From contig DUNG01000023.1 of assembly GCA_012839475.1 (NCBI GenBank), positions 1-64,000 of the forward strand: a stretch of DNA of 64,000 bases, read 5' to 3'. The stretch comes from Petrimonas sp. (GTDB lineage: Bacteria > Bacteroidota > Bacteroidia > Bacteroidales > Dysgonomonadaceae). A program made the position numbers and the translations under genes. Each line of letters opens with the position of its first letter. Position 1 is the stretch's first letter. A model generated the notes under the pieces. It was not told the DNA's origin. It saw only the letters and a program-made list of their open reading frames with translations, and searched no databases. Of the stretch, positions 1,591-64,000 are shown piece after piece.

Positions 1591-3249
1591 ATGGCACAGG
1601 TATTCTCATTAATAAAAATCGTTTGCGTGGCCGCTTGTTTCACGTGGGCATATTCAAGCGCCATCGCGCAAGTAAGTGACCCTGATTTCATCTATAGAAT
1701 CAGCGTGGACGCCGAGGAGATGAAAGAAGGAAAATTCGAACCAACGTGGGAGTCGCTACAGCAATACGAAGTTCCTGAATGGTTTCGAGACGCGAAGTTT
1801 GGCATGTGGACACACTGGGGACCTCAATGTCAACCGCAGCGAGGCGATTGGTATTCCAGGGGCATGTACGAAGAGGGGTCACGTCAATACCGTGAACATA
1901 TTAGGCAGTACGGCCATCCCTCGGAATTCGGGTTCAAGGACGTTATAAACGAGTGGAAAGCGGAGAAATGGGACCCTGAAGCCATCGTGGCCCTGTACAA
2001 GCGAACGGGGGCCAAGTACTTCGTGGCCCTGGCGAACCACCATGACAACATGGATTTGTGGGACAGCAAGTACCAGCCTTGGAATTCCGTGAACATGGGC
2101 CCCCGGAGGGACATCATCGGGGAGTACGAGAAGGCGGTACGAGCCAACGGCTTGCGCTTTGGCGTGACGTTCCACGCGGCCCACGCGTGGTTGTTTCACG
2201 AACCGGCGCGGTTAGCCGACACGAGCGGCCCGAAAGAAGGAGTTCCTTACGACGGGAGGCTCATGAAAGAAGATGGCGTGGGTACCTGGTGGGAAGGGTA
2301 CGACCCGCAGGATCTTTACGCTCAAGACCATGCCCCGAGCCCAGAGAAAAACATCCACGTGAACTGGCATTGGACTAACATTGGAGGTGTTACTTTCCCC
2401 GACAGGAAGTTCACGGAGAATATTTACAACCGCACGCTCGATCTCATAAACAAGTACAAGCCGGATTTACTCTACTTCGATGACACGGTTCTACCCCTCT
2501 ACCCGGTGAGCGACGGCAGCTTGAAAACGGTCGCCCATTTTTACAACTCATCCATGGAGTGGAATAACGGGAAAAACGAAGCGGTAATAACCGGGAAGGT
2601 GTTAACTAACGACTACGAGAAAAAGTCGATAGTTTGGGACATCGAGAAAGGCACGCCCAATGAAATACAGGAATACCCATGGCAGGTTTGCACCTGTATC
2701 GGAAGCTGGCATTATGATATCAACATTTACAACAACAACCGGTACAAGAGCGCGGAAACCGTTATCCGTCAGTTGATCGACGTGGTTAGTAAAAACGGGA
2801 ACCTGTTGCTGAACATCCCCATGAGGGGTGACGGCTCCTTCGACGATAAAGCGTTGGCCATCGTCGAGGAGATAGGGGATTGGATGGCCGTTAACAGCGA
2901 GGGCATCTACGCTACACGCCCGTGGAAAGCTTTTGGTGAAGGGCCGGATGCCGAATCGGTCGTTGCCCTCAACGCGCAAGGTTTTAACGAGGGACGCGTG
3001 AACAAATTCACGGAGAGGGAAGTCCGTTACACCTCGAAGGGGAACACCGTCTACGCGTACGTGATGGGGTATAACGAGGCTCCTATTACCCTGACCTCTT
3101 TCGGTAAAGAGGATAAGGTGAGATCGGTGACCTGCTTGGGGACTCGCGAGAGAGTACGGTGGAGGCAAAACAGTAGCGGTCTTACTATCCAACCGATGAA
3201 GAGGAAAGAGATCGTGGCACCCATCTGTTACAAGATCGTATTAAAATAA
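1591..3249 (+). CDS. Alpha-L-fucosidase, GH29
   Basis: This is a predicted secreted or periplasmic exo-enzyme releasing alpha-linked L-fucose. The N-terminus is a signal peptide (hydrophobic core, cleavage near AIAQ). The GH29 fold is recognised from WFRDAKFGMWTHWGPQ near residues 62-77, the conserved ALANHHDNMDLWDSKY block, and the nucleophile region DLLYFDD with the likely nucleophile Asp297. The tail block GNLLLNIPMRGDGSFDD is also typical of the family. At 552 aa it is complete, with a C-terminal beta-sandwich. It is the first gene of the PUL, about 190 bp beyond the IS element, and is followed by a strong hairpin at 3292-3322, so it is probably its own transcript. A second, divergent GH29 lies at 22661. 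Linkage specificity cannot be read from sequence. Confidence 0.93.
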   Translation: MAQVFSLIKIVCVAACFTWAYSSAIAQVSDPDFIYRISVDAEEMKEGKFEPTWESLQQYEVPEWFRDAKFGMWTHWGPQCQPQRGDWYSRGMYEEGSRQYREHIRQYGHPSEFGFKDVINEWKAEKWDPEAIVALYKRTGAKYFVALANHHDNMDLWDSKYQPWNSVNMGPRRDIIGEYEKAVRANGLRFGVTFHAAHAWLFHEPARLADTSGPKEGVPYDGRLMKEDGVGTWWEGYDPQDLYAQDHAPSPEKNIHVNWHWTNIGGVTFPDRKFTENIYNRTLDLINKYKPDLLYFDDTVLPLYPVSDGSLKTVAHFYNSSMEWNNGKNEAVITGKVLTNDYEKKSIVWDIEKGTPNEIQEYPWQVCTCIGSWHYDINIYNNNRYKSAETVIRQLIDVVSKNGNLLLNIPMRGDGSFDDKALAIVEEIGDWMAVNSEGIYATRPWKAFGEGPDAESVVALNAQGFNEGRVNKFTEREVRYTSKGNTVYAYVMGYNEAPITLTSFGKEDKVRSVTCLGTRERVRWRQNSSGLTIQPMKRKEIVAPICYKIVLK

Positions 3250-22541: not shown

Positions 22542-22610
22542 CGGGAACGAGGAAACCGGGAACGAGGAAACCGGGAACGAGGAAATCGGGAACACGAACA
22601 CCGGGAACTG
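22542..22610. repeat. 15-bp tandem repeat, about 4.5 units
   Basis: The unit CGGGAACGAGGAAAC occurs at 22542, 22557, 22572 (one change) and 22587 (degenerate), with a partial unit at 22602. It lies just after the sulfatase stop and before GH29. Expansion by slippage is the simplest origin; no function is visible. Confidence 0.85.
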
Positions 22611-33558: not shown

Positions 33559-33669
33559 TCAACAACTTATTTTTCACATGTTATTTACGTTTCAAATTAT
33601 TGCCTTTTATGTCGTCACTCGGCAAAGCTTGAGCGAGCTCAGCTATGCTCTCGTTCCTAAGAAAATTCA

Positions 33670-33819
33670 GCTTTCAGAGCGAAGACCTCATAAATTCCTG
33701 CGCAGACACATCCTGCGAAGATTGCGTTAAAAAAGAAAAGCTGTTTGAACAACGTGAGTTCTTTTCTTTTAGCAAGCAGAAGATGAGTCGCAGGATTTAT
33801 GCCAGTCGAGCCTGAAAGC
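33670..33819. repeat. Structured foldback element, copy A
   Basis: This sits in the 290-bp gap between the ApgM gene and thrC. Nested pairings: GCTTTCAG (33670-33677) with CTGAAAGC (33812-33819); CATAAATTCCTGCG (33689-33702) with CGCAGGATTTATG (33789-33801, one bulge); ACACATC (33706-33712) with GATGAGT (33782-33788, one mismatch); and an inner A-rich/T-rich stem (about 33728-33739 with 33758-33770). The core from about 33706 to 33735 is shared almost base for base with copy B at 61714-61746. Outside the core the stem sequences differ but still pair. It may be transcribed within the thr operon. Confidence 0.75.
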
Positions 33820-33848
33820 GAAAGTTAGGACAACAACTAAACAAAAAT

Positions 33849-60264: not shown

Positions 60265-60305
60265 ATTGCTCATTGCTCATTGCTCATTGCTAATTGCTAA
60301 TTGAT
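60265..60305. repeat. 7-bp tandem repeat (ATTGCTC/ATTGCTA), about six units
   Basis: Units ATTGCTC x3, ATTGCTA x2 and a final ATTGATA run head to tail, ending 4 bp before the ATG at 60310. Changes in unit number would change the spacing to the start codon. Confidence 0.85.
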
Positions 60306-60856: not shown

Positions 60857-61642
60857 ATGATTACTAGCTTGCAAAACCCGTTCATCAAGAACGTGGTAAA
60901 ACTGTCGAAGGCCAGGGAGCGCATGGAGCAGCAACGCTTCGTTATTGAAGGGGCCAGGGAGCTCTCGCTGGCTCTGGAAGGGGGCTATGAGATCGTGGAG
61001 CTGTACGTTTGCAGGGAGCTATTCGCCACTACCCGCTACCCGGGGGTGTTGACCACGATTCCTGAGAAGGTTGTCGTTGAGGTATCCCGTGAGGTGTTTC
61101 GGAAGATGGTGTACCGGGAAAGCTCGGACGGCGTGGTGGCGCTGGCCAAGCCTAAGGAACATAAGTTGGGCGACCTGAGGTTGGGTTCAAACCCGTTTGT
61201 GATTATCCTGGAGGCGGTGGAGAAGCCGGGTAACCTGGGGGCGGTGCTGAGGACGGCCGATGCCGCCGGGGTGGACGCGGTGGTGGTGTGCGACCCGAGG
61301 ACGGATCTTTACAACCCAAACGTGGTGCGTTCGAGCGTGGGGACGCTCTTCACCGTGCAGACCGCTCGATGCACGTCGGTAGAGGCGCTGGAGTGGCTCC
61401 GAGAGAACGGTATTGCCTCATACGCGGCCGAGCTGCAAGCAGCCGAGTGGTACCAAGATGTTGATTTCACCGGTCCCTCCGCTATCGTGATGGGTACGGA
61501 GGCGGAAGGGTTGACCGACTTTTGGGTCGACAATTCGACGAAGCGCATTAAGATTCCCATGCGGGGGAAGATCGATTCACTGAACGTGTCGGTCTCCACG
61601 GCCGTGCTCACCTTCGAAGCGATGCGGCAGAGGGGGTATTAA
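60857..61642 (+). CDS. TrmH/SpoU-family RNA 2'-O-methyltransferase
   Basis: This is an RNA ribose methyltransferase of 261 aa. An N-terminal substrate-binding domain (SLQNPFIKNVVKLSKARERMEQQRFVIEGARE) precedes the knotted SPOUT domain with motif 1 ILEAVEKPGNLGAVLRTADAAGVDAVV, motif 2 AIVMGTEAEGLTDFW and motif 3 IPMRGKIDSLNVSVSTAVLTFE. RNA target (rRNA or tRNA) unknown. Its final codons and stop are in the first copy of the 21-bp direct repeat bounding foldback element B. Confidence 0.95.
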   Translation: MITSLQNPFIKNVVKLSKARERMEQQRFVIEGARELSLALEGGYEIVELYVCRELFATTRYPGVLTTIPEKVVVEVSREVFRKMVYRESSDGVVALAKPKEHKLGDLRLGSNPFVIILEAVEKPGNLGAVLRTADAAGVDAVVVCDPRTDLYNPNVVRSSVGTLFTVQTARCTSVEALEWLRENGIASYAAELQAAEWYQDVDFTGPSAIVMGTEAEGLTDFWVDNSTKRIKIPMRGKIDSLNVSVSTAVLTFEAMRQRGY

Positions 61643-61874
61643 CTCAATTTTCGCAAGTTACATTTCTGCTGTTATTTGCTTTCAAGACGAAGGCCTTGGC
61701 TCGTTTTACGGGGACACATCCTGCGAAGTTCGCGTTAAAAAAGAAAAGCTGTTTGAGCGACTTTAGTCGTGAGTTTTTTTCTTATAGTGAACAAGCAGCA
61801 GATGGGTCGCAAAACGAGCGTCAGTCAAGCTTGAAAGCAAACGATAAACGCAAATGCGGCAGAGGGGGTATTAA
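61622..61874. mobile_element. 211-bp insertion with foldback element B, bounded by 21-bp direct repeats
   Basis: Exact 21-bp copies occupy 61622-61642 and 61854-61874 (both begin ATGCGGCAGAGG). The first ends with the methyltransferase stop and the second contains the stop of the minus-strand peptidase. Between them (61643-61853) lies copy B of the structured element. Pairings: GCTTTCAAG (61678-61686) with CTTGAAAGC (61830-61838); GCTCGTTTT (61699-61707) with AAAACGAGC (61811-61819); ACACATC (61714-61720) with GATGGGT (61801-61807, one mismatch); and an inner A-rich/T-rich stem capped by CGACT-TT-AGTCG (61759-61770). No protein is encoded. The structure matches insertion with target-site duplication. 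Confidence 0.7.
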
Positions 61875-64000
61875 TACCCGTATCCCCACGTTTTCCCTTT
61901 CTCGATCGCGGGAACTCCCTTAGTCATCCATGTCGGCGCAGGTTCCCCCTTCAGGTAGTGGTCGAAGAACTGCTGCAGCCGGATAGAGAGGTCCTTGCTG
62001 TTGCGGCGATGCAGGAGGTTATGCTCCTCGTTGTTGTACTGTAACATCCACACCGGCTTGCCTAGACGGCGCATGGTCATGAACAACTCGATCCCCTGGT
62101 ACCAGGGTACCGCTCCATCGTTGTCGTTGTGCATGATGAGCAGGGGGGTATTTATCTTGTCGGCGAAGAAGACCGGCGAGTTCCGCAGGTAGACCTCCAG
62201 CGAATCGCTCATGGTGTAGCCTAAGCGGGATTGTGTCTGCTCGTACTGGTACTGGCGACTTCTCCCGGATCCCCACCGGATACCCCCGTAGGCGCTGGTC
62301 ATGTTTGAAACGGGTGCACCTGCACCAGCGGCCTTGAACATATCGGTTCGTGTGATTAGGTAGGCCACCTGGTATCCACCCCAACTCTGCCCCTGGATCG
62401 CCATGTTTTCCCTATCCACCCAATCGTTCTTGGCGAGGGCTTCTGCCCCGGAGACAATCGCGTTGTAGGCATCTTCACCTGGTTGCCCCACCGTGTAGTG
62501 GATATCTGGTGTGAAGACAAGGTACCCGCGACTCACGAAAAACGGGATGTTGACGGTAGATCGACTTGGTGCCGGGGTGAAGTAGCGGTAAAGCTCGTCG
62601 GAATGTTGTTCGTAGAAATAGATCATGACCGGGTACTTTTCCGTGGGATCAAAATCTTCCGGCTTGTAGAGGATACCTTCGAGTGGCACGCCGGCATAGG
62701 AGATCCACGAGAAGAGCTCTGCTGTACCCCAGTTGTATTGCTCCATCTGCGGGTTGATATCGGTGAGCCTTCTGGAGGTTTTCCACAAGTCGCTCGTCAC
62801 ATGTAGGTCGGGCGATGTGTTGAAGTTGCTCTTCTGGTAGACCAGCAGGTCGCTCTCCTTGGCTTTCATCAGGCCAGAGTAGGTAAATCCTTCCATCTTC
62901 CTCTTTTGCAAGGGGTTTCGCCCCGACTGCTTGAGGGTATAGTAACCCCACTCTTTGCTCTTGTTGTTGAACGCTGAAAGCAGGAGGAGGTCGCCCTTTT
63001 CGATAAACCGTTTATCGGGATCGGTCTGGACGTACCGGAAGGTGATGGAGTCAGAGCGGCCCGTGTGGGCGGTGATATTCTCGGCCCCCTTCACCCCTTT
63101 TGGATACACCCTCCATAGGTCGAACGCGTCGTAGATAAGGATGTATTCGTCGTTCTCGCCCCAGGCGGCTACCCCGTACGCGCCGGGGGCAGCAGGCACA
63201 TCATTCTTTTCGTTCCAGAAGTTAACGGGAATCTCTCCGGTAAGGCTTCTGATAGAGCGGGAGACGATATCGTACACGAACCACTCCAGCTTATGGCTAT
63301 CCCACCAGTAGAGGTAGGTGCCCCTAGGTGATAACATTGGTCTCGCAAAGAGTGGCTTAGCGACCTCGTGTAGGCTGTTCGTCTCCAGGTCCATTACCCA
63401 TACGTCGTACTTTGCCAAAAGGTCCCACGTGCTCTCTATCAGGTAGGGGAGGTTGGAACTAAGTAGGGCGTAACGGCCGTTCCCCTCGTCTGAAATAGCC
63501 GCGTTGGGCATCGTCTCGTTGGCGATGGCGGTAAAGTGGTTCGGGCGATCCGGGCGGACGATGCCGATGTAGGTGCGGCGCTCTTCACCTCTTAGCTCCT
63601 TCAGTTGTTGGGGCTGAATCAACGGATCCATCCAGTGCCAGATGTCAAGCTTCGCCATCTCGAAGTCAACAATCGTGGTGTCTTTAGGTGGCTGCTTGGG
63701 GGCCGCCCCGATAAGTATTCGCTCGCCGTTCTTGCTGAACGAGGGGGAGGCATACTCGTTAAAGATCCATCCCTCGGGCAAGCCTAATGCAGAACGATCG
63801 GCCAATACGCGGGCGGAATCGCTCTCCACGCTATAGTAACGCAGGTCGTACTCCTTCTGCTCCACCTTGGAGGTGTCGCCCGTGGCAAGGTAGGTGAGCT
63901 GCCCGCCGGGCTCATCGAACACGAGCGACCTGTACTCTTTCTGGTCGCTCGAAATGGTTTTACGCGTATTGTTCACCAGATCGAAAAACTCCACCCGGCG
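61871..64000 (-). CDS. S9-family prolyl oligopeptidase-like peptidase (partial at window edge)
   Basis: This is a serine peptidase of the DPP-IV/acylaminoacyl-peptidase type, probably exported and acting on peptides. About 708 residues are visible and the frame stays open to 64000, so the N-terminus is outside the window; the Met at 63994 is internal. A propeller (repeats such as PSFSKNGERILIGAA, RPMLSPRGTYLYWWD) is followed by the alpha/beta hydrolase with nucleophile IQGQSWGGYQVA, Asp in MHNDNDGAVPW and His in NNEEHNLLHR. The C-terminal ...KTWGYGY ends in the second copy of the 21-bp repeat; before the insertion its stop overlapped that of the convergent methyltransferase gene. Confidence 0.92.
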   Translation of the reverse strand, partial: RRVEFFDLVNNTRKTISSDQKEYRSLVFDEPGGQLTYLATGDTSKVEQKEYDLRYYSVESDSARVLADRSALGLPEGWIFNEYASPSFSKNGERILIGAAPKQPPKDTTIVDFEMAKLDIWHWMDPLIQPQQLKELRGEERRTYIGIVRPDRPNHFTAIANETMPNAAISDEGNGRYALLSSNLPYLIESTWDLLAKYDVWVMDLETNSLHEVAKPLFARPMLSPRGTYLYWWDSHKLEWFVYDIVSRSIRSLTGEIPVNFWNEKNDVPAAPGAYGVAAWGENDEYILIYDAFDLWRVYPKGVKGAENITAHTGRSDSITFRYVQTDPDKRFIEKGDLLLLSAFNNKSKEWGYYTLKQSGRNPLQKRKMEGFTYSGLMKAKESDLLVYQKSNFNTSPDLHVTSDLWKTSRRLTDINPQMEQYNWGTAELFSWISYAGVPLEGILYKPEDFDPTEKYPVMIYFYEQHSDELYRYFTPAPSRSTVNIPFFVSRGYLVFTPDIHYTVGQPGEDAYNAIVSGAEALAKNDWVDRENMAIQGQSWGGYQVAYLITRTDMFKAAGAGAPVSNMTSAYGGIRWGSGRSRQYQYEQTQSRLGYTMSDSLEVYLRNSPVFFADKINTPLLIMHNDNDGAVPWYQGIELFMTMRRLGKPVWMLQYNNEEHNLLHRRNSKDLSIRLQQFFDHYLKGEPAPTWMTKGVPAIEKGKTWGYGY

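What the first reader, a model, noticed from the sequence alone, without database searches (positions are those of the whole stretch)
61622..61874. Small non-coding element inserted with an exact 21-bp target duplication between two convergent genes
The last 21 bases of the TrmH-family gene (61622-61642) are repeated exactly at 61854-61874, where they contain the stop of the convergent S9 peptidase. Removing 61643-61874 would restore a single junction where both stops overlap by 2 bp. Thus a 211-bp, protein-free foldback element appears to have inserted by a staggered cut, leaving both genes intact. A 21-bp duplication is long for ordinary DDE transposons and points to an unusual mobiliser (target-primed or phage-like) acting in trans.
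Basis: partly seen in the sequence, partly recalled or inferred. Interest (0 to 1): 0.85.

Follow-up and report, generated by a model that had tools for sequence, protein, structure and literature searches.

The report
Mobile hairpin with overlong target duplication
A 211-base hairpin sits between two genes that nearly touch in relatives; it belongs to a family of small jumping elements that usually copy 7-8 bases of their target, and here an unusual right-hand junction stretched that copy to 21 bases.

Summary
ATGCGGCAGAGGGGGTATTAA occurs exactly twice (61622-61642, 61854-61874) around a 211-nt foldback. Relative G030 has the predicted empty site: one copy, stop codons overlapping by 2 bp. 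Of 30 trmH loci read in the genus, 2 carry the element (this genome and G022). The insertion is not recent: G022's copy is 90% identical.

The element belongs to a MITE-like hairpin family (34 BLAST matches in this genome; 29 of 101 genomes of the taxonomic family). Where both ends (CTTAACTTTCGCATG and its inverse) are recognisable, duplications are 7-8 bp at 26 of 44 sites in three genomes and 13 of 17 in congeners, against about 1 expected. None reaches 10 bp. So no exotic mobiliser is needed, and IS1202-group DDE elements make 16-28-bp duplications anyway.

The window copy is an exception. The last ~9 nt of its right end are missing and 8 target bases stand in their place; ATGCG is common to element and target. 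One other site (L157/L140) has a 16-bp duplication, right end missing, empty in this genome. I favour re-alignment (conversion or template switching) between duplication copies; aberrant end-joining or a real 16-bp mode are not excluded. No transposase was found in the stretches examined.

The parts
60857..61642 (+). TrmH/SpoU-family RNA methyltransferase gene; its last 21 bases are the left repeat copy
   Evidence: ORF; Pfam PF00588 E 1.2e-37
61622..61642 (+). left copy of the 21-bp direct repeat (native end of the trmH gene)
   Evidence: present once in the empty site of G030
61635..61642 (+). GGTATTAA, left copy of the inferred canonical 8-bp target duplication
   Evidence: lies directly outside the left terminal inverted repeat, where other copies have their 7-8-bp duplication; inference for this copy
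61643..61853 (+). 211-nt foldback element (to 61858 if the shared ATGCG is counted as element)
   Evidence: absent in G030, orthologous in G022 at 90%, 34 matches in own genome, itself included, fold z -3.4
61643..61657 (+). left terminal inverted repeat CTCAATTTTCGCAAG (family CTTAACTTTCGCATG)
61710..61810 (+). conserved core GGGGACACATCC ... GATGGGTCGC with apical hairpin
   Evidence: alignment of 28 copies; coordinates
61849..61858 (+). CGCAAATGCG, element right arm; the expected terminal ~9 nt (AAAGTTGAG) are missing after it
   Evidence: same sequence followed by AAAGTTGAC in family copy L030; coordinates
61854..61874 (+). right copy of the 21-bp direct repeat
61859..61866 (+). GCAGAGGG, flank-derived bases in place of the element's right terminus
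   Evidence: identical to 61627-61634; comparison with copies that keep the right end
61867..61874 (+). GGTATTAA, right copy of the inferred canonical 8-bp duplication
   Evidence: inference for this copy
61871..63994 (-). convergent S9-family peptidase gene, stop codon at 61871-61873 inside the right repeat copy
   Evidence: ORF; Pfam PF00326 E 4.2e-27
33566..33829 (+). second copy of the family in the window (264 nt), flanked by TCAACAA / ACAACAA (6 of 7)

Best explanation
The insert is an old copy of a non-autonomous, MITE-like foldback family of Dysgonomonadaceae. Shown: terminal inverted repeats, multi-copy dispersal, a 7-8-bp A+T-rich target duplication at over half of the sites with recognisable ends, presence/absence at this site between relatives, and three identical copies at different sites in a congener. 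Inferred: a trans-acting cut-and-paste (DDE-type) transposase, not found, put this copy at GGTATTAA with an 8-bp duplication in an ancestor of G000 and G022. Inferred, about 45% likely: the overlong repeat arose because the two duplication copies, helped by ATGCG lying just upstream in both target and element end, re-aligned during replication or repair of the hairpin. The ~9 terminal element bases were then overwritten by the 8 flank bases upstream of the left duplication (8 + 8 + 5 = 21). Alternatives for the extra length: aberrant right-end joining at insertion (about 25%) or a real second mode with a 16-bp duplication (about 20%).
For: Empty site in G030; the element core is present in 2 of the 30 trmH loci read in the genus and not detected in the other 28. 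Repeat family: 34 matches in G000, itself included, 60 and 53 matching pieces in G022 and G030, 29 of 101 genomes and 9 of 15 genera of the family. Of 44 unique sites with both ends recognised in G000/G022/G030, 26 have a 7- or 8-bp duplication with at most 1 mismatch (expected 1.4 at k=7, 0.4 at k=8), 8 exact at 8 bp (expected 0.02), 1 at 9 bp with 1 mismatch, none at 10 bp or more; in congeners 13 of 17 at 7 bp (expected 0.7). Three copies in G012 are identical over 211 bp with different flanks (L328-L330). The window copy has the canonical left end with GGTATTAA beside it, while its right end stops at CGCAAATGCG where L030 continues AAAGTTGAC. Homogenisation: base 10 of the repeat is A in both G000 copies, C in both G022 copies and C in G030; the G022 copies differ at 3 of 21 bases, the G000 copies at none. 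Conversion-like exchange is visible in the family: orthologous copies differ by whole modules, and L289 has a module plus a different loop half compared with its ortholog L153.
Against: Another site (L157/L140) also shows 16 exact bases, a near-canonical left end and a right end stopping at nearly the same element position, with an empty site in G000. Two such similar cases look more like a regular 16-bp mode than accidental conversion. The homogenisation argument rests on one informative base. No relative with the canonical right end at this site was found. G022's own two copies share at most 10 exact bases. No transposase with matching ends was found: among 124 stretches read (417 kb) only 2 pairs of facing ends lay 600-3500 nt apart, and the genes in them are host genes. 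In 18 of 44 and 4 of 17 sites no 7-8-bp duplication was recognisable.
Confidence: 0.7

Rival explanations
1. Aberrant insertion: the left end was joined canonically, while the right end was resected by ~9 nt and joined 16 bp away in the target, through the 5-bp ATGCG microhomology in the window copy. The long duplication arose in one step.
For: Right end truncated at both long-duplication sites; ATGCG occurs in the target (G030 empty site) and in the element end of L030; no later re-alignment step is needed.
Against: L157 has no microhomology at the joint; nothing explains why both cases give 16.
Confidence: 0.25
2. A real second mode: some copies are mobilised with an alternative right end (CGYAAATRC) and a 16-bp stagger, by a long-duplication transposase such as an IS1202-group relative, or by a different chemistry.
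For: Two independent sites share the duplication length (16; 16-21 in the window) and nearly the same right endpoint. Transposases with 16-28-bp duplications exist (PMC10132070, passages).
Against: Other copies of the same inner type look shorter: L030 has 7 bp with 1 mismatch and L294 8 of 8 (its score of 8 is below the 95% control of 9, so weak on its own). None of 44 + 17 sites with both ends recognised has 10 bp or more, although that set excludes copies without a canonical right end, hence both long cases.
Confidence: 0.2
3. Not an insertion: the element is ancestral, or the repeat is a local tandem duplication around unrelated intergenic sequence.
For: G022 carries the element with ordinary divergence, and G030 groups with G022 in the trmH tree (support 0.903), so its empty site may be a secondary loss between the repeats.
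Against: The element core was not detected in 28 of 30 trmH loci of the genus, 16 of which keep the convergent S9 gene. Related elements lie at many other sites, and another insertion has an empty site in this very genome.
Confidence: 0.03
4. A structured RNA gene rather than a mobile DNA element.
For: Strong fold on the + strand (z -3.4); the + strand folds more stably in 25 of 28 copies; the core is conserved across species.
Against: No Rfam match at gathering scores. G-U versus A-C counts are close in the less biased tests (11 v 8; 10 v 3). Terminal repeats and target duplications show DNA transposition. An RNA role in addition is not excluded.
Confidence: 0.1

Closest known systems
Bacterial MITEs in general (e.g. 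BrickBuilt of Porphyromonas gingivalis, PMC4596501; passages read)
   Same: Short, non-coding, multi-copy, intergenic, terminal inverted repeats, target duplications in some copies (3 of the 4 BrickBuilt copies with both ends, of differing lengths), no transposase of its own
   Different: Different ends (AAGACCTTTGCA and CCGAAAGGTCTC appear in the passage of its Table 2); BrickBuilt holds a 23-nt minisatellite, this family is a long foldback with exchangeable hairpin modules
IS1202-group insertion sequences (PMC10132070; passages read)
   Same: Target duplications of 16-28 bp, in the range of the 16 and 21 bp seen at the two exceptional sites
   Different: That family's members encode a large transposase and have outer ends 5'-TGT (stated for the ISAjo2 type, with similar ends in the rest); the family here has CTTAACTTTCGC ends, no gene, and 7-8-bp duplications where readable
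REP/BIME palindromes and RAYT-mobilised repeats (PMC2817692, search listing only)
   Same: Intergenic hairpins dispersed in many copies, composite arrangement
   Different: This family makes 7-8-bp target duplications, which single-strand Y1 transposition does not (recalled)

Membership tests
[quoted passage not shown]
   211 nt with no ORF of 100 aa or more inside; other copies 36-368 nt, leaving aside doubtful L169 (438) and two copies with N runs
[quoted passage not shown]
   both ends recognised (at most 4 mismatches of 15 each, 7 together) in 51 copies of G000/G022/G030; in the window copy only the left end is complete
[quoted passage not shown]
   7-8 bp at 26 of 44 and 13 of 17 sites; the window copy and L157/L140 deviate (21 and 16 bp)
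[quoted passage not shown]
   G030 at this site, G000 for L157, G000 for L171
[quoted passage not shown]
   in 124 stretches (417 kb) of three draft genomes only 2 facing end pairs 600-3500 nt apart, around host genes; not every end site was read, and no search by transposase family was made
IS1202-group mobilised element | TGT-type ends | tested here: not met
   ends are CTCAATTTTCGC (window) or CTTAACTTTCGC (family)
IS1202-group mobilised element | duplication of 16-28 bp | tested here: inconclusive
   true for 2 sites, not for the 26 of 44 + 13 of 17 sites with a readable duplication
target-primed (retro-) insertion | no inverted-repeat ends, duplication of variable length | tested here: not met
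   inverted-repeat ends and 7-8-bp duplications in the family
target-primed (retro-) insertion | reverse transcriptase supplied in trans | not tested
   no search for reverse transcriptases was made
Rfam RNA family | score above gathering threshold | tested here: not met
   0 matches in the window; best weak hit E 0.73 to a lncRNA family, taken as chance

The most novel reading that the evidence does not exclude
The family has two insertion modes: canonical two-ended transposition with a 7-8-bp duplication, and a second, end-asymmetric mode that uses an internal right end (CGYAAATRC) and duplicates 16 bp (two canonical staggers), seen independently at the window site and at L157/L140.
Probability: 0.2. 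Interest if true: 0.65.

Novelty: new member of a known kind. Interest (0 to 1): 0.4.

Why it matters
It corrects a tempting inference: one perfect 21-bp flanking repeat does not show how an element moves. The same family gives 7-8 bp at the readable sites, and the repeat at this site may have been homogenised after insertion. It also brings out a common hairpin family in Dysgonomonadaceae with nested, exchangeable modules, orientation differences between orthologs, deletion derivatives and identical recent copies, and no transposase seen so far. If the 16-bp class is a real second mode, it would be a rare natural case of one element family with two duplication lengths.

Tried and rejected
Rfam: nothing at gathering thresholds; the only weak hit, E 0.73, was treated as chance. 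RNA-level selection: a biased count (G-U 97 v A-C 7 on the + strand fold) was rejected as circular; less biased counts were inconclusive. Autonomous partner: end patterns gave 8, 17 and 12 sites and 29, 45 and 39 sites (reversed-pattern controls 7, 13 and 2) in G000, G022 and G030. In the 124 stretches read, two facing pairs lay 600-3500 nt apart; the genes inside are a lipid A acyltransferase-like gene (L168) and, for L162, a histidine kinase gene and a GNAT-like gene, so neither is a transposon. The genus-wide pattern list was cut off by the tool. Transposases were not searched by Pfam accession. Taking 21 bp as the family's rule was rejected. Empty sites for 18 other copies: only L171 gave a clean one, where the flank alignments overlap by 10 aligned bases and the filled site has 9 bp with 1 mismatch; of the other 17, 14 were aligned and were occupied, decayed, rearranged or incomplete, and 3 (L129, L142, L158) were not aligned there. 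Literature: searches for Bacteroidales/Bacteroidetes MITEs, nested foldback repeats, P. gingivalis MITEs and 8-bp bacterial MITEs listed no paper that I recognised as this family; titles and abstract starts only, except the passages cited (PMC10132070, PMC10969869, PMC4596501).

Full report
OBSERVATION. The 21-bp sequence ATGCGGCAGAGGGGGTATTAA stands at 61622-61642 and 61854-61874, exactly. Chance is excluded: 2 matches in the window at up to 3 mismatches against 0.01 expected, and the longest flank repeat at 3000 random positions with the same geometry was 11. The left copy ends a TrmH/SpoU methylase gene; the right copy holds the stop of a convergent S9 peptidase gene. The 211 nt between them fold back strongly (-66.4 kcal/mol, z -3.4; other strand -55.9, z -2.7).

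EMPTY SITE. All 39 genomes searched in the genus have a trmH-like match, in some only a distant one. I read the junctions of the 30 best loci, the window's own included; the other 9 genomes were not read, and 3 of the 30 loci have under 300 nt downstream. The element core (16-mers at up to 3 or 2 mismatches) lies downstream of trmH in 2 of 30: the window and G022. The convergent S9 peptidase is found in 18 of 30; the 16 of these without the element have intergenic distances of -4 to 127 nt, except one of 1091. The element is thus an insertion. It is not recent: G022 carries the orthologous element at 90% identity, about the genomic background (trmH DNA distance 0.132 to G000; 0.113 on the S9 side). 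In the trmH tree G030 groups with G022 (0.903), so G030 may have lost the element by deletion between the repeats, or lineage sorting may be at work. The 27 other loci without it indicate that the empty state is ancestral.

FAMILY. The window element gives 34 matches in its own genome, itself included; some are pieces of one copy, and 40 of 57 candidates were scored. A related copy (L021) matches 60 and 53 pieces in G022 and G030 and 29 of 101 genomes, 9 of 15 genera, of the family (at most 8 candidates scored per genome). Copies share the ends CTTAACTTTCGCATG / CATGCGAAAGTTAAG and mostly range from 36 to 368 nt. Three copies in G012 are identical over 211 bp with different flanks (L328-L330), so the family has moved recently there.

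DUPLICATION LENGTHS. In the three close genomes, 51 copies had both ends recognisable (at most 4 mismatches of 15 each, 7 together), at 44 unique sites. A 7- or 8-bp duplication with at most 1 mismatch directly outside the ends flanks 26 of 44 (expected 1.4 at 7, 0.4 at 8); 8 are exact at 8 bp and 6 exact at 7 bp; 1 site has 9 bp with 1 mismatch; none has 10, 12, 16 or 21 bp even with 1 mismatch. In congeners 13 of 17 sites show 7 bp (expected 0.7), 7 of them exact. The 9-bp case is L171, and it has an empty site in G000 whose flank alignments overlap by 10 aligned bases. Copies without a recognisable right end, which include the window copy and L157/L140, are not in these counts. A wider look at 72 core-bearing copies for the longest exact flank repeat put the window (21) and L157/L140 (16) on top; next came L142 (14), L175 and L032 (13), and the G022 ortholog of the window copy had 10. 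Allowing mismatches, in a partly different set of 71 copies (99% control 10.5), the order was window 21, L157 and L140 16, L142 14, L032 13, L127 11.5, L124 11. L142 and L175 are 8-bp duplications extended by adjoining bases; L032 is an internal module.

THE TWO EXCEPTIONS. L157 (G030) and its ortholog L140 (G022) carry TTGAGTTAAAGTCATA on both sides of a 207-nt element. A search with 1201 bases of L157 found G000 matching both flanks with a 16-bp overlap (C60:116421-116436), and the sequence shows one copy and no element. The duplication there is therefore real. In both exceptional copies the left end is canonical or nearly so, while the right end stops short (window ...CGCAAATGCG, L157 ...CGTAAATAC) where L030 goes on with AAAGTTGAC. 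In the window, the 8 bases outside the left end (GGTATTAA) are where the family's duplication should be. The next 8 (GCAGAGGG) replace the lost end on the right, and the remaining ATGCG is common to the element (L030) and the target (G030). Hence 21 = 8 + 8 + 5.

MECHANISM. I favour canonical insertion by an unseen DDE-type transposase, followed by re-alignment of the two duplication copies so that upstream flank overwrote the element's right terminus. Shown: the family rule, the truncated right end, the shared ATGCG, and a sign of later homogenisation (repeat base 10 is A in both G000 copies and C in both G022 copies and in G030; G022's copies differ at 3 of 21). Also shown: orthologous copies differ by whole internal modules, which makes conversion-type events plausible in these hairpins. 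Inferred: the transposase and the order of events. Against: the two exceptions agree on 16 bp and nearly on the endpoint, which a regular second mode would explain better; the homogenisation sign is a single base. A search of the 124 stretches read for facing ends 600-3500 nt apart gave two pairs, and the genes in both are host genes, so the mobiliser remains unknown.

COMPARISON. The family meets the tested defining features of a MITE except that no autonomous partner was found. The P. gingivalis BrickBuilt MITE (PMC4596501, passages) is the nearest published case in Bacteroidales that I saw; its ends and structure differ. I recognised no paper describing this family in searches, but the library lacks most subscription journals.

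VERDICT. A real insertion and a real duplication, belonging to a family I did not find described but of an ordinary kind. The exceptional length is a local oddity seen at two sites, with three explanations still open.

Noticed in passing
L021 (G000) v L143 (G030); L016 (G000) v L135 (G022): At orthologous sites the element core lies in opposite orientation relative to the flanking genes, so the foldback has been inverted in place.
   Followed up: partly
L015 v L146; L013 v L156; L012/L127 v L155; L153 v L289: Orthologous copies differ by whole nested hairpin modules (ATATTTGCG..GCAAATATC, AACTTTTGCG..GCAAAAGT, TTTTCTTAGGAGCGAGAGCAG..AAAAGGCAATAA) in stems or apical loop, like Russian dolls.
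   Followed up: partly
L026 (G000), L123 (G022), L173 (G030): One orthologous site holds a 214-nt element in two genomes and only a 55-nt end-to-end hairpin in the third, as if the hairpin had collapsed.
   Followed up: no
window 33566-33829: A second copy of the family in this window, 264 nt, with a module in its left arm and TCAACAA/ACAACAA flanks.
   Followed up: partly
L168 1923-2944 (G022): Two facing family ends lie 1022 nt apart around a lipid A acyltransferase-like gene whose last codons run into the left arm; whether this is a composite or two half copies is open.
   Followed up: partly
genomes G113, G114, G116 (one search places): A middle part holding the apical hairpin (query positions between 82 and 143 of 209) gives 8 matches in each of these genomes of other genera, which is the scoring cap, so it may be an older repeat of its own.
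   Followed up: no
window 22542-22608 and 60265-60303: Short tandem arrays: 15-bp unit x 4.5 and 7-bp unit ATTGCTC x 5.6.
   Followed up: no
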